Below are positions 16,179 to 20,189 of a DNA stretch of 64,000 bases, in pieces. The notes under the pieces are model-generated. The model made no database searches, was not told the origin of the DNA, and was given only the letters and a program-made list of their open reading frames with translations. Location: NCBI RefSeq assembly GCF_022227845.1, contig NZ_JAJNQN010000009.1, positions 62,001-126,000 on the forward strand, written 5' to 3'. The first letter of the stretch is position 1. Every line of letters starts with the position of its first letter. The stretch comes from Ectothiorhodospira lacustris. Its GTDB lineage: Bacteria > Pseudomonadota > Gammaproteobacteria > Ectothiorhodospirales > Ectothiorhodospiraceae. The position numbers and the translations under genes are program-made.

Positions 16179-17363
16179 ATGCAACACCGATGTTTCCTTT
16201 TCAGCGTGACCTTGCTGCTTCTGCTTGGGAGCAGCATGTCGTGGGCGGATGATCTTATGCAGTACTGGGACATCGGCAGCTACCTGGGTCGGTATCCGGA
16301 CCAGCAGTCCTTGCTCCACGATTTTACCGCGCGGGTTAGAAGCGCTCCTCGGCCGCTACCGGCCGACATGAGCGACAGACCTGTCGTCAGAGTGGCGCTG
16401 CTGTATCCCGATCTGCAGGCTTCCGACTATTGGCAGCGCAACCTGACGGCCTTTGAGCGCCGCGCCCGAGCACTTGGGCTCAATCTCTCCATCACGGTCT
16501 ATTCCAGTCAGCCCGGCGGCATCGATCCCATGCTGCAGGCGGAGCAGTTGCGGGTGGCGTTGGCCGGGCAACCTGATTACCTCGTCTATACCCTGGACAC
16601 GCCTATCCATCACCGCTTGGCCGAGCGTTTGCTGGCCATGTCCTCCGCCGACAGAGCGGGTCCGAAAATCATCCTGCAGAATATTACGACTCCCTTGCGC
16701 GCCTGGGACGGCATGCAGCCTTTCCTGTATGTGGGTTTTGACCACATCGAGGGTTCGCGCATGCTGGCGCGCCACCTTGCCGGTATGACCAGTGGGCAGG
16801 GAGAAGTGGTGGTGCTCTACGCGGGGGATGGCTATATCAGCGAAGTCCGGGGTGATACATTCATCCGTGAGATCGCCGCCTTCCCCGGGCTCCGGGTCCG
16901 CGCTACCTATTTGACCCACCTGCAGATGGACGTCGCCCGTCGGGCGACCGAGGACGCGCTGAAGCGCTACCCGAATGCGGTCCTGATCTATGCCTGCGCC
17001 ACTGATATTGCGCTCGGGGCGGTGGCGGCGGTGGCGAACGCGGGGCGTGGGGACACCCCGCTCGTTAATGGCTGGGGCGGCGGCGCCGAGGAACTGCATC
17101 TGATCGGTACGGGAGCCCTGGCCGCCACCATAATGCGCATGAATGATGATGCCGGTGTGGCGATGGCCGAGGCCATCGCCATGGACCTGCAGGGGGAGGG
17201 GCATCGGGTGCCGCAACTGTTTTCCGGGGACATGGTGCTGGTGACCCGTGACATGGAGGCCGCCACGATCGATCATCTCAAGCAACGGGCCTTTCGCTAT
17301 TCCGGCGCACCGGCGGATGCGCCGTCACGACAAATCCTTCCCGCTCCTCTGACCGGCCGTTAA
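16179..17363 (+). CDS. luxP: LuxP-type periplasmic autoinducer-2 receptor
   Basis: A periplasmic type-1 binding protein of 394 residues with a signal peptide ending at SWA/DD (residue 23). It aligns along its whole length with Vibrio harveyi LuxP as I recall it: QASDYWQRN, IILQNITTPLRAWD, PFLYVGFDHIEGSR, ISEVRGDTFI, YACATDIALGAV, NGWGGG and MRMNDDAG. The eight residues contacting borated AI-2 in LuxP (Q77, S79, W82, N159, R215, T266, W289, R310) all appear at regularly shifted positions: Q80, S82, W85, N168, R224, T275, W299, R320. The ATG at 16179 is chosen because it begins the signal peptide. The GGDEF-EAL gene follows after 18 nt. Ligand identity is inferred from residues. Confidence 0.9.
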   Translation: MQHRCFLFSVTLLLLLGSSMSWADDLMQYWDIGSYLGRYPDQQSLLHDFTARVRSAPRPLPADMSDRPVVRVALLYPDLQASDYWQRNLTAFERRARALGLNLSITVYSSQPGGIDPMLQAEQLRVALAGQPDYLVYTLDTPIHHRLAERLLAMSSADRAGPKIILQNITTPLRAWDGMQPFLYVGFDHIEGSRMLARHLAGMTSGQGEVVVLYAGDGYISEVRGDTFIREIAAFPGLRVRATYLTHLQMDVARRATEDALKRYPNAVLIYACATDIALGAVAAVANAGRGDTPLVNGWGGGAEELHLIGTGALAATIMRMNDDAGVAMAEAIAMDLQGEGHRVPQLFSGDMVLVTRDMEAATIDHLKQRAFRYSGAPADAPSRQILPAPLTGR

Positions 17364-17381
17364 TTTCGGAACGTTTCCCCC

Positions 17382-20189
17382 ATGGCCAGACGTACACTGA
17401 TCAACACGATCGTCGTTGCACTGGGTGGCGGCATGGTGCTGTTCAGTGTGTTGGCGGTGGTGCTGACCATCCAGGGTACCCGTCAGGCCACGCTGGCGGA
17501 ATTGCAGCGAGGTTTTGATCGCAGTGCAGCCCTGGCAAGCCTGATCCTGGATCAGGAAATCGAGGGCATCCAGCGCATGAGCAACGAAATCATGCGTCTG
17601 CGCGCCTTGCAGCAGGCGGTACTGGAAGGGCGGCGGGACCTGGCGGAACATCTGTTGTTGCGTCAGATACAGTTGGATCTCCAGGGCGTTTTTGACGGCC
17701 TGGTCATCAGTCGTGAAGAGGATGCCCTGTGGCTGTCCGGAGGCTTTGCCGTCTATCGCAAGGAGGCATTGCTGGAGTGGCTGGCGCTACAGCACGAAAA
17801 CCACAGCGGGTTGTCGGGCAGCCGGCTGCACGAAATGGTGGATGAAGGCGGGCGGTCCCATCTGGTGCTGGTGGTGTCCCAGCATTTTCGCGACCCGGAC
17901 ACCGGGCGCCGGCTGGGCAGTTTCAAGGGGGCTGTGATTCTTTCCGACCGCCCAAGCCTGTTCAATCGGGTCAGGAGCGCGGCCGATCTGCAGGGAGTGG
18001 GATGGATGATTGACAACCATCTCTTTGTCGGACCCCTTCCGGCCGACACTCTGCTGTCCGGGGGCCGGCCCCGGCTGATGGCGTCGACCAATGCCGCCGA
18101 CGGCTTCATTCGCGATGACTCGCTCTACATCGCCCTGCGCCCCTTGAACCTCACCACCATCACCCAGGCGCCGGTCATGATCATGAGTGTGGAAGATCCC
18201 CGTGACGAAGCCCGCATCCTGATCACCGTGATGAGTCTGCTGGCGACGGTCATCGTGATTGTCATGGCGGGGCTCCTGCTGTTTTTGACCCGCTTCGTCG
18301 CCTTGCCCTTGCGCCGCCTGGCCGAGCAGGCGCGGCAGCTATTGCCGGCCGGGCCGTTGCGGCCGCTGAGCAAGCCTCGTTTCCATACCGATGACGAGTT
18401 GGGCCAGCTGGTGAACGCCTTCAATGACCTCATTCGGCGTATCTCGATTCACCAGCACGAACTGGATCGCATGGCGCATTATGACATCCTGACGGGGGTA
18501 CCCAACCGCAGGCTGCTGGCCGACCGCATTTCCCAGGCCATTGCCCGTGCTCGCAGGACTCGCTCCCCCATTGCAATCTGCTATCTGGATCTGGACGGTT
18601 TCAAGCCCATCAATGACCGCTTCGGTCATGCCACGGGAGATCGCCTGCTGCTGGACATTGCCGAGCGTCTCAAGGGCTTGCTGCGGGCCGATGATACCCT
18701 GGCCAGGCTCGGTGGGGATGAGTTCGTGCTTCTGTTCAATAATCTGGGCAGCACGGACGAGGCACATCGTCTTTTCCAGCGCTTACTCATCGCCGTGGCA
18801 GAGCCGGCAATTTTCGACGGGGCCTGTGTGCGATTGTCAGCCAGTATGGGGGTTACCTTCTTTCCCGAGGACGATAACGACGCCGATACGCTGATCAGGC
18901 ATGCGGATCAAGCCATGTATCAGGCCAAGGAGGCCGGTAAGAACCGGTACGCCATCTTTGATATGGACCAGAGTCTGCGGCATCAGGGGCGGTTGGAGTT
19001 CATCAAGTCCATGGAAGCCGGTCTGCGGGAGGCACAGTTCCTGTTGCACTATCAGCCCAGGGTCGACCTGGTCAGCGGCAGAGTGACTGGCGCCGAGGCC
19101 CTGCTGCGGTGGCAGCACCCGCAACGGGGCTTGCTCATGCCCGCCAGCTTCTTGGACGATCTGAGCAGCAGCGGGCTGGAACCGCGCATCGGCCGCTGGG
19201 TCATTGAGCAGGCACTCTGCCAGATGGCACAGTGGCAGGCACAGGGATTGCGTCTGAGCATCAGCGTCAACATCAGTGCCCATCATCTTCTTGAACCGGG
19301 CTTTGCCGGTTGTCTGGAGTCGGCACTGGCGCGCTACCCTCAGTTGCCACGGGAATCACTGGAATGCGAAATTCTGGAGAGCGCTACCTTCAGCGACCTC
19401 TACAAGGCCGGCAGCGTCGTTGCCCAATGCAAGAAACTGGGGGTTCGGTTCGCGCTGGATGACTTCGGTACGGGCTACTCCTCGCTGGCCTATTTTCGCA
19501 CCTTGCCGGTGGATGTGCTCAAGATCGATCGTAGCTTTGTCATGGACATGCTGGAAGACCCCAACGATCTGGATATCGTCGAAAGCATCGTGGGCCTGGC
19601 GGCCACCTTCAATAAGGACATCATCGCTGAAGGGGTGGAAAACATGGAACAGGCCGCTTTCCTCATCCGACTGGGATGTCGCCATGTCCAGGGATACGGC
19701 ATTGCACGTCCCATGCCTCAGGAGGCACTGCCTGCCTGGATTCGAGAATGGACGTACAATCGGCCGGTACTGCCGGTCCATCTTGGCGGGGGTCTGGAAG
19801 GGGACCTGAACCTGTCAGTAGCAGTACGCGGCTATCAGCGCTGGTTTGAGAATGTGATGCTCAGAATTCAGGAAGGCAGTCCGCCCCCGGATGATCTGTT
19901 CAATACCCGTTTTGTGCGTTGGTATAACGGTAGTGGCTCGGCCCGCTACGGTATGTATGAAGCCTTCTCGGACCTGTGGGGAGCCCATGCCAGGGTGCAC
20001 GAACTGCTGTTATCTCTAGTGGGTCCGACAAGAGCGGGCGCATGGCCCCAACGGCTGCATGGTCGTCGACCCGAGCTTGAGGCGGCTCGGGATGCCGTGT
20101 TGGCGTGTTTTGTCCGGCTGGAGCGCCGCGGTGCTTTGGAGGAGGGCAAGAGTGTCCAGCGGCATCCGACGAATGCAGCGCGCAGATAG
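17382..20189 (+). CDS. LuxP-coupled membrane GGDEF-EAL protein with CZB-like C-terminus
   Basis: A 935-residue inner-membrane c-di-GMP enzyme. It has TM1 (about 8-30), a large periplasmic domain (about 31-280), TM2 (about 284-305) and HAMP (about 306-360). A GGDEF cyclase domain follows (about 365-525) with GGDEF at 444-448 and an intact inhibitory site RADD five residues before it. An EAL phosphodiesterase domain (about 540-785) has EAL at 572-574, DDFGTGYSSL and AEGVE. Both catalytic domains look competent. The C-terminal 110 residues resemble a CZB zinc-binding domain but with two ligands changed (Y818, T842; H869 and H873 kept). Its position 18 nt after luxP suggests it takes the place of LuxQ. 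V. cholerae NspS-MbaA is a precedent for this layout. Confidence 0.9.
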   Translation: MARRTLINTIVVALGGGMVLFSVLAVVLTIQGTRQATLAELQRGFDRSAALASLILDQEIEGIQRMSNEIMRLRALQQAVLEGRRDLAEHLLLRQIQLDLQGVFDGLVISREEDALWLSGGFAVYRKEALLEWLALQHENHSGLSGSRLHEMVDEGGRSHLVLVVSQHFRDPDTGRRLGSFKGAVILSDRPSLFNRVRSAADLQGVGWMIDNHLFVGPLPADTLLSGGRPRLMASTNAADGFIRDDSLYIALRPLNLTTITQAPVMIMSVEDPRDEARILITVMSLLATVIVIVMAGLLLFLTRFVALPLRRLAEQARQLLPAGPLRPLSKPRFHTDDELGQLVNAFNDLIRRISIHQHELDRMAHYDILTGVPNRRLLADRISQAIARARRTRSPIAICYLDLDGFKPINDRFGHATGDRLLLDIAERLKGLLRADDTLARLGGDEFVLLFNNLGSTDEAHRLFQRLLIAVAEPAIFDGACVRLSASMGVTFFPEDDNDADTLIRHADQAMYQAKEAGKNRYAIFDMDQSLRHQGRLEFIKSMEAGLREAQFLLHYQPRVDLVSGRVTGAEALLRWQHPQRGLLMPASFLDDLSSSGLEPRIGRWVIEQALCQMAQWQAQGLRLSISVNISAHHLLEPGFAGCLESALARYPQLPRESLECEILESATFSDLYKAGSVVAQCKKLGVRFALDDFGTGYSSLAYFRTLPVDVLKIDRSFVMDMLEDPNDLDIVESIVGLAATFNKDIIAEGVENMEQAAFLIRLGCRHVQGYGIARPMPQEALPAWIREWTYNRPVLPVHLGGGLEGDLNLSVAVRGYQRWFENVMLRIQEGSPPPDDLFNTRFVRWYNGSGSARYGMYEAFSDLWGAHARVHELLLSLVGPTRAGAWPQRLHGRRPELEAARDAVLACFVRLERRGALEEGKSVQRHPTNAARR

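What the first reader, a model, noticed from the sequence alone, without database searches (positions are those of the whole stretch)
16179..20189. LuxP-type AI-2 receptor wired to a GGDEF-EAL enzyme instead of a LuxQ kinase
Seen: a LuxP homologue with all eight AI-2 contact residues of Vibrio LuxP present (Q80, S82, W85, N168, R224, T275, W299, R320), offset from the Vibrio numbers by +3, +9 or +10 in blocks. The next gene, 18 nt on, encodes TM-periplasmic domain-TM-HAMP-GGDEF-EAL with both catalytic motifs and the inhibitory RADD site intact. Known: in Vibrio, LuxP signals through the LuxQ histidine kinase, and in V. cholerae NspS (a different binding protein) signals through the GGDEF-EAL protein MbaA. 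Inferred: here AI-2 occupancy of LuxP directly sets c-di-GMP level, a quorum-to-second-messenger switch with no phosphorelay, in a phototroph.
Basis: partly seen in the sequence, partly recalled or inferred. Interest (0 to 1): 0.92.

Follow-up and report, generated by a model that had tools for sequence, protein, structure and literature searches.

The report
AI-2 sensor wired to c-di-GMP enzyme
A purple phototrophic bacterium carries the Vibrio-type receptor for the chemical signal AI-2 next to a membrane enzyme that keeps Vibrio's matching sensor domain but makes and breaks the messenger c-di-GMP, so it can probably listen to its neighbours' AI-2 although it has no known gene for making AI-2 itself.

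Summary
Eighteen bases on, window:17382-20189 encodes TM, periplasmic domain, TM, HAMP, GGDEF, EAL, motifs intact.

Pfam gives LuxQ-periplasm below cut-off, profile comparison with Vibrio LuxQ 92%, and LuxQ leads all three structure searches. This is a LuxPQ-type receptor with another output.

It is no one-off: the pair is in 8 of 10 genomes of the genus (Ectothiorhodospira), 3 with GGDEF alone; a parallel LuxQ-PAS-GGDEF-EAL form follows 23 of 58 LuxP genes in a Marinobacterium's family.

"Quorum" is not supported: luxS is absent from 10 of 10 genus genomes, so it looks like an eavesdropping receptor. Direct AI-2 to c-di-GMP signalling is published for other sensors (YeaJ, rpHK1S-Z16), and a binding protein acting on a GGDEF-EAL enzyme is known (NspS-MbaA). 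Ligand, complex formation and sign of the effect are inferred. New variant of a known kind.

The parts
16179..17363 (+). luxP-type gene: periplasmic AI-2-binding-protein homologue, 394 aa
   Evidence: phmmer E 3.8e-84 to V. harveyi LuxP 1ZHH_A; 44.5% identity and 8 of 8 listed contact residues; Peripla_BP_4 E 1e-20
16179..16247 (+). probable Sec signal peptide (about aa 1-23)
   Evidence: read by eye from the translation; no predictor was run
17382..20189 (+). LuxQ-type-periplasmic-domain / HAMP / GGDEF / EAL / CZB-like-tail membrane enzyme, 935 aa, starts 18 nt after the luxP stop
17409..17465 (+). first transmembrane segment (about aa 10-28)
   Evidence: hydrophobicity scan
17472..18215 (+). 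LuxQ-type periplasmic domain (aa 31-278)
   Evidence: Pfam LuxQ-periplasm E 1.6e-4, 21.8 bits against cut-off 25.7; hhalign with 5 Vibrio LuxQ domains 92.3%, E 5.6e-7; AF2 pLDDT 86.3, pTM 0.85; Foldseek ranks 1-6 all LuxQ; VIA Z 16.9-18.2 for five LuxQ entries, next 14.9
18228..18284 (+). second transmembrane segment (core about aa 283-301)
   Evidence: hydrophobicity scan
18282..18443 (+). HAMP linker (aa 301-354)
   Evidence: Pfam E 6.3e-7, 30.1 bits against cut-off 25
18474..18947 (+). GGDEF diguanylate cyclase domain (aa 365-522), GGDEF motif and RxxD inhibitory site intact
   Evidence: Pfam E 1.4e-45; motif check
19020..19712 (+). EAL phosphodiesterase domain (aa 547-777), the checked motif set intact
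   Evidence: Pfam E 2.8e-69; motif check
19839..20006 (+). CZB-like (chemoreceptor zinc-binding) C-terminal stretch, below cut-off (aa 820-875)
   Evidence: Pfam E 9.2e-4, 20.0 bits against cut-off 29.4; tail aligns in five EAL-bearing relatives

Best explanation
This is a LuxPQ-type two-protein receptor whose cytoplasmic output is c-di-GMP turnover instead of phosphorelay. SHOWN by sequence: a LuxP with the AI-2 pocket, co-oriented 18 nt ahead of a membrane protein that has a LuxQ-type periplasmic domain, HAMP, a GGDEF and an EAL domain with intact motifs; the same pairing across most of the genus; no luxS in the genus. INFERRED from the LuxPQ system: LuxP sits on the periplasmic domain; borated AI-2 closes LuxP; the closed form re-arranges the receptor dimer; HAMP passes this to the enzyme and shifts the balance between diguanylate cyclase and phosphodiesterase. 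Because the cell has no LuxS, the signal is most likely other species' AI-2. Sign: in LuxPQ, AI-2 drives an asymmetric dimer and inhibits the kinase (PMC8396549 passage), so I lean slightly (about 55:45) to AI-2 lowering c-di-GMP; NspS-MbaA, YeaJ and rpHK1S-Z16 are precedents for the opposite sign.
For: 7 of the 8 pocket columns are among the 43 of 337 columns conserved at 95% or more (hypergeometric p 2.5e-6, relatedness not corrected). LuxQ-type domain; the model behind one search used only genus sequences and no LuxQ. Linkage: LuxP in 8 of 10 genus genomes, each followed by the LuxQ-domain enzyme; at E 1e-5 the domain is found once in each of 9 of 10. GGDEF motif intact in 8 of 8 genus partners beside LuxP, EAL motif set in the 5 of 5 that have EAL. 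Non-Vibrio LuxPs can bind AI-2: PMC12268683 says that 3 sensory domains picked from 267 LuxPs of Proteobacteria and Deferribacterota showed AI-2 binding (passages).
Against: luxS is absent from 10 of 10 genus genomes, so AI-2 as natural ligand rests on pocket conservation. The Pfam LuxQ-periplasm score is below the curated cut-off for the window protein and for the two other genus members scanned. Other dCache folds follow LuxQ in the structure lists (Z 14.9 against 16.9-18.2), so direct ligand binding by the periplasmic domain is not excluded. G002 has an intact 927-aa enzyme but no luxP, so the enzyme may matter without LuxP there. In G009 the partner frame is broken at its 5' end. No complex was modelled and no biochemistry done.
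Confidence: 0.74

Rival explanations
1. Same two-protein receptor, but LuxP's natural ligand in Ectothiorhodospira is not AI-2: another furanose or a borate-sugar adduct present in its saline, alkaline habitat.
For: No luxS in 10 of 10 genus genomes. LuxP belongs to the sugar-binding Peripla_BP_4 family. A274 replaces S265. In a family where luxS occurs, the LuxP-GGDEF-EAL genomes taken alone do not hold luxS significantly more often than the rest: 16 of 23 against 53 of 93, p 0.35. A borate-rich habitat is recalled knowledge, from no call.
Against: All eight AI-2 contacts, with the two arginines named for AI-2 (R215, R310; PMC3794749 and PMC6452917 passages), are kept in the window while LuxP identity within the genus falls to 47-51%. 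In that other family, all LuxP genomes together do go with luxS: 39 of 48 against 30 of 68 without LuxP, p 6e-5, relatedness not corrected.
Confidence: 0.17
2. The periplasmic domain binds its own small ligand directly, as dCache sensors do, and LuxP is a dispensable modulator or has another job.
For: Other dCache structures follow LuxQ in the lists. G002 has the enzyme without LuxP.
Against: In 8 of 9 enzyme-bearing genus genomes luxP is directly upstream. In the Marinobacterium's family 53 of 58 LuxP genes have a downstream protein that matches my LuxQ-domain profile, though some of these matches are weak (E up to 5e-4), and Pfam shows no LuxQ-periplasm in 3 of the 4 HisKA_3 kinases scanned. 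LuxQ itself senses through LuxP (PMC8396549 passages).
Confidence: 0.12
3. The pair is a decaying remnant of a transferred receptor with no present signalling role.
For: luxP missing in G002, partner 5' end broken in G009, no match to either gene in G005; EAL and tail missing in three genomes.
Against: Both reading frames open in 7 of 10 genomes (8 with luxP, less G009 with its broken partner); GGDEF motif in 8 of 8 and EAL set in 5 of 5; seven pocket positions unchanged in all 8 genus LuxPs (the eighth is E in G009), while the partner's periplasmic domains are only 37-77% identical to the window's.
Confidence: 0.08

Closest known systems
LuxP-LuxQ (Vibrio harveyi, V. cholerae)
   Same: LuxP with the same pocket letters; LuxQ-type periplasmic domain by profile and by fold; luxP directly upstream in the same orientation, as in the Vibrio loci fetched
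   Different: Output is HAMP-GGDEF-EAL, or GGDEF alone, in place of histidine kinase plus receiver; no luxS in the genus
NspS-MbaA (V. cholerae, Sinorhizobium meliloti)
   Same: A periplasmic binding protein controls a membrane GGDEF-EAL enzyme; V. cholerae: PMC8079147 (passages); S. meliloti: PMC9993111 (search listing)
   Different: NspS senses norspermidine and, by recall, belongs to another binding-protein family; MbaA has SGDEF and EVL motifs, here GGDEF and EAL
YeaJ (GAPES1 diguanylate cyclase, Salmonella) and rpHK1S-Z16 (dCache diguanylate cyclase, Rhodopseudomonas palustris)
   Same: AI-2 directly controls c-di-GMP synthesis (PMC9637222 passages; PMC7584622 passages); R. palustris is a phototroph by recall
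   Different: They bind AI-2 in the enzyme's own periplasmic domain, without a binding protein
LuxQ-periplasm proteins with a c-di-GMP output counted in PMC4822843, Table 1
   Same: The table gives 115 LuxQ-periplasm proteins: 112 under HK and 1 under GCD (passage). I take GCD to mean c-di-GMP domains, as in PMC12268683; its expansion in the 2016 paper was not seen
   Different: A bare count in the passages I saw; no LuxP partner or AI-2 link is mentioned in them

Membership tests
LuxP (AI-2-binding periplasmic protein) | Best match to LuxP among solved binding proteins over nearly the whole chain | tested here: met
   E 3.8e-84 over residues 27-375 of 394; best non-LuxP entry 5.1e-14
LuxP (AI-2-binding periplasmic protein) | AI-2 contact residues conserved | tested here: met
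   8 of 8 listed; S265 is A274
LuxP (AI-2-binding periplasmic protein) | Binds borated AI-2 | not testable with these tools
   needs calorimetry or the V. harveyi bioassay
LuxQ | LuxQ-type periplasmic domain by profile comparison and fold | tested here: met
   hhalign 92.3%; Foldseek ranks 1-4 and 1-6; VIA Z 16.9-18.2
LuxQ | Pfam LuxQ-periplasm score over the curated cut-off | tested here: not met
   21.8 bits against 25.7; genus relatives 18.7 and 20.4
LuxQ | Histidine kinase and receiver output | tested here: not met
   No kinase or receiver domain listed; HAMP, GGDEF, EAL instead
LuxS/AI-2 quorum sensing | Own AI-2 synthase LuxS | tested here: not met
   PF02664 in 0 of 10 genus genomes; the control search rings in 5 of 14 named genomes
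Bifunctional GGDEF-EAL enzyme | Intact GGDEF and EAL motifs | tested here: met
Bifunctional GGDEF-EAL enzyme | Measured cyclase and phosphodiesterase activity | not testable with these tools
   needs biochemistry
NspS-MbaA | NspS-type binding protein | tested here: not met
   The binding protein is LuxP; that NspS belongs to another family is recalled, no NspS was compared

The most novel reading that the evidence does not exclude
LuxP plus the LuxQ periplasmic domain is a portable AI-2 input module that evolution has plugged into at least five outputs: hybrid histidine kinase, HisKA_3 kinase, GGDEF, GGDEF-EAL and a SpoIIE-type phosphatase. Direct AI-2 to c-di-GMP wiring through LuxP is a main form in one marine-type family and was acquired separately in Ectothiorhodospira, which lacks luxS and uses it as a dedicated eavesdropping receiver. 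The LuxQ-type domain also changes its binding protein, lying next to a TctC protein in some genomes.
Probability: 0.5. Interest if true: 0.75.

Novelty: new variant of a known kind. Interest (0 to 1): 0.62.

Why it matters
That gives a natural set of receptors with one sensor and different outputs, a direct test of how a binding-protein signal crosses the membrane, and, in luxS-less phototrophs, a candidate for true interspecies listening, since the cell cannot make AI-2 by LuxS.

Tried and rejected
Rejected: a plain sugar-transporter binding protein (the gene that follows is the enzyme and then a DUF3617 protein; the pocket letters are LuxP's). Rejected: chance neighbourhood (the neighbour carries a LuxQ-type domain). 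Rejected as too strong: a proven separate origin of the two c-di-GMP forms. The LuxP tree needs two label changes once 8 of 81 rows of unclear label are set aside, and the window protein has HAMP where the marine-type proteins scanned have PAS domains, but one clade of all 31 is not rejected (p-AU 0.131). In that count the partners of about 600 aa were labelled kinase, although only four of them were scanned by Pfam. Rejected as too strong: that LuxP-GGDEF-EAL genomes follow luxS (16 of 23 against 53 of 93, p 0.35).

Led nowhere or weak: a Protein Data Bank sequence search with the 8-row profile put LuxQ first but only at E 0.011. The first structure model was poor (pLDDT 58.6). A 369-genome class sample found LuxP only in the genus (2 genomes, own included, E 1e-40). 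In a 398-genome phylum sample 19, own included, had LuxP-like matches; partners were looked at for 10 loci, and none was GGDEF. The luxP remnant in G002 was recognised by eye only: tblastn with nine LuxPs gave no significant match there. Papers: no paper of the library holds both 'Ectothiorhodospira' and 'autoinducer-2'. I saw no description of a LuxP with a GGDEF or EAL partner in the listings of searches or in the passages read; these cover open PubMed Central papers only, I read no paper whole, and subscription papers and most preprints are outside them.
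Full report
WHAT IS THERE. window:16179-17363 encodes a 394-aa LuxP homologue and window:17382-20189 a 935-aa membrane protein 18 nt further on. S265 of V. harveyi, which I recall as lining the pocket, is alanine here, as in two of the Vibrio LuxPs aligned and 19 of 81 rows in all. As a control, ribose-type protein 5DTE shares 1 of the 5 contact positions that its alignment covers.

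THE ENZYME IS A LuxQ-LIKE RECEPTOR WITH ANOTHER OUTPUT. Pfam finds HAMP, GGDEF and EAL above cut-off, and LuxQ-periplasm (E 1.6e-4, 21.8 bits, cut-off 25.7) and CZB (20.0 bits, cut-off 29.4) below it. Three lines raise the LuxQ match. (1) The profile of 8 genus domains against 5 Vibrio LuxQ domains gives 92.3% probability, E 5.6e-7, colinear over 181 columns. (2) A model from genus sequences alone, of poor confidence (pLDDT 58.6), has four V. harveyi LuxQ chains as its four best Foldseek matches. (3) A model from 49 domains has pLDDT 86.3 and pTM 0.85; LuxQ chains are Foldseek ranks 1-6 and VIA-align ranks 1-5 at Z 16.9-18.2, rmsd 3.6-4.3, 204-216 residues, against 14.9 for the next, a dCache sensor. 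Line 3 is not blind to LuxQ, since LuxQ rows were in its alignment.

THE PAIR IN THE GENUS. The genome belongs with Ectothiorhodospira: contigs of two genus relatives have the same lengths as those of E. shaposhnikovii and E. magna records. LuxP is in 8 of 10 genus genomes and in none of the other 48 relatives searched, at E 1e-20. All 8 are followed by the LuxQ-domain protein: with GGDEF, EAL and tail in 5 (G000, G001, G003, G004, G008), with GGDEF only in 3 (G006, G007, G009). In G009 the partner's 5' end is out of frame. A search with the LuxQ-type domain at E 1e-5 finds one copy in each of 9 of 10. The ninth, G002, has an intact 927-aa GGDEF-EAL partner but no luxP match; the short gap between it and the YdjM-like gene upstream holds letters that look by eye like the LuxP C-terminus, without a significant tblastn match. 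G005 has no match to either. So the pair is conserved but not invariably. Beside LuxP, the GGDEF motif is intact in 8 of 8, the RxxD site in 7 of 8 (one KxxD) and the EAL motif set in 5 of 5. The reaction-centre family PF00124 is in 10 of 10, so the host is a phototroph.

NO OWN LuxS. PF02664 is in 0 of 10 genus genomes; the same search rings in 5 of 14 control genomes. Non-LuxS routes to AI-2 are mentioned as proposed in PMC7584622 (passage) and were not tested here.

BEYOND THE GENUS. A genome-collection scan gave 17 loci, two of them in the genus. Of the 7 non-genus partners scanned by Pfam, one, in a Marinobacterium, is LuxQ-periplasm, PAS, GGDEF, EAL, and six are LuxQ-periplasm kinases: two Vibrio, Pokkaliibacter, Desulfobotulus, an alphaproteobacterium, and Magnetovibrio, the last ending in a hemerythrin domain. 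In the family of that Marinobacterium 48 of 116 genomes have LuxP. I fetched all 58 LuxP places listed: 23 have a LuxQ-type GGDEF-EAL partner, 10 a LuxQ-type kinase that my profiles recognise, 20 a protein with a LuxQ-profile match (some weak, E up to 5e-4) and no recognised output, 5 no LuxQ-profile match downstream. Four of the partners of about 600 aa were scanned by Pfam and all four are HisKA_3 kinases (L107, L110, L117, L120), but LuxQ-periplasm was found in only one of them, L107; the others of that size were not scanned. Two of the 20 show no kinase: L090 is a free LuxQ domain of 337 aa and L108 is cut by its contig. luxS is in 39 of 48 LuxP genomes and 30 of 68 without LuxP (p 6e-5, relatedness not corrected), but the 23 LuxP-GGDEF-EAL genomes taken alone (16 with luxS) do not differ from the rest (53 of 93, p 0.35). 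In a class sample around Desulfobotulus 7 of 241 genomes have LuxP; one partner there ends in a SpoIIE phosphatase domain (L136). In a phylum sample 19 of 398 have LuxP-like genes; of 10 loci looked at, 4 have LuxQ-type kinases, 2 a protein with a weak LuxQ match and no recognised output, 4 none, and no GGDEF.

THE POCKET ACROSS OUTPUTS. Over 81 LuxP rows, 31 of them with c-di-GMP partners, plus V. harveyi LuxP, the eight letters QSWNRTWR are complete in 76 of 82. Among the 31 the one exception is Q to E in L032 (G009). Duplicate loci (L011, L014, L015, L020, L081) and L017, whose LuxP frame is broken, were left out before this count. The pocket thus does not depend on the output, the expected pattern for one ligand with several effectors.

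EVOLUTION. In the LuxP tree the genus (8 rows, 100/99) and the marine-type GGDEF-EAL rows form two groups. With 8 of 81 rows of unclear label set aside the tree needs two changes, yet a single clade of all 31 is not rejected (p-AU 0.131). The linker differs: HAMP in the window protein, PAS in the two marine-type proteins scanned, L011 and L178. In the marine-type form the EAL set is intact in 23 of 23, the GGDEF motif in 21 of 23 and the RxxD site in 8 of 23, which hints at phosphodiesterase-led enzymes there and feedback-controlled cyclases in the genus. That is inference.

MECHANISM AND PRIOR WORK. LuxP-AI-2 drives an asymmetric LuxQ dimer and inhibits the kinase (PMC8396549, passage). NspS-MbaA shows that a binding protein can set the balance of a GGDEF-EAL enzyme (PMC8079147, passages). 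AI-2 already acts directly on diguanylate cyclases through dCache (PMC7584622) and GAPES1 (PMC9637222) domains. LuxPQ itself lowers c-di-GMP in V. cholerae, through the phosphorelay and transcription (PMC11796354, passage). A 2016 survey lists one LuxQ-periplasm protein in its GCD column (PMC4822843, Table 1). The 2025 survey that reports 267 LuxPs speaks of LuxP binding AI-2 'for transport into the cell', and its main text does not hold the word LuxQ (PMC12268683, passages). Against this background, LuxP plus a LuxQ-type domain driving GGDEF(-EAL) is a new variant: the parts are known; the wiring I did not find described in the listings of searches.

VERDICT. Observation confirmed; interpretation partly supported. 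What remains open is what needs a bench: ligand, complex and sign.

Noticed in passing
L175:3423-7177, L181:2611-6433; by eye also L176, L179, L180 (family of G402, genomes without a LuxP match): LuxQ-type-domain GGDEF-EAL proteins lie directly downstream of a TctC-type binding protein instead of LuxP (TctC confirmed by Pfam for L175 and L181 only; in L176 the enzyme frame is split; in L177 the upstream gene is a PfkB kinase). The LuxQ-type domain seems to have changed its binding-protein partner.
   Followed up: partly
L136:5218-7461 (G694, class of Desulfobotulus): A LuxP is followed by LuxQ-periplasm, HAMP (below cut-off), PAS and a SpoIIE phosphatase domain: a further output for the same sensor.
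   Followed up: partly
L174:5850-6000 (G002, same genus): luxP is missing; letters that look by eye like its C-terminal end remain just before an intact enzyme gene: an orphan sensor.
   Followed up: partly
L178:898-4196 and L092 (G457): LuxP and a LuxQ-GGDEF-EAL protein are about 144 kb apart on one contig, on opposite strands, with a weak LuxP-like C-terminal piece (profile E 4e-3) beside the enzyme: perhaps an operon split by rearrangement.
   Followed up: no
L170:3476-6181 and L173:5002-7689 (G910, G895): Divergent LuxP-like genes are followed by frames of about 900 aa with a weak LuxQ-periplasm match and no other Pfam domain at E 0.01: output unknown.
   Followed up: no
window:19839-20006: CZB-like tail after EAL: no conserved Cys is seen where I recall the zinc ligand, and one His of the HxxxH pair is missing in three of six sequences compared (L026, L028, L031), so metal binding is doubtful.
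   Followed up: partly
L025:7097-9349 (Magnetovibrio blakemorei): The LuxQ-type kinase next to LuxP ends in a hemerythrin domain, which could join an oxygen or iron input to the AI-2 input.
   Followed up: no
L019 and L020 (Motilimonas): LuxP genes with no LuxQ-type gene next door.
   Followed up: no
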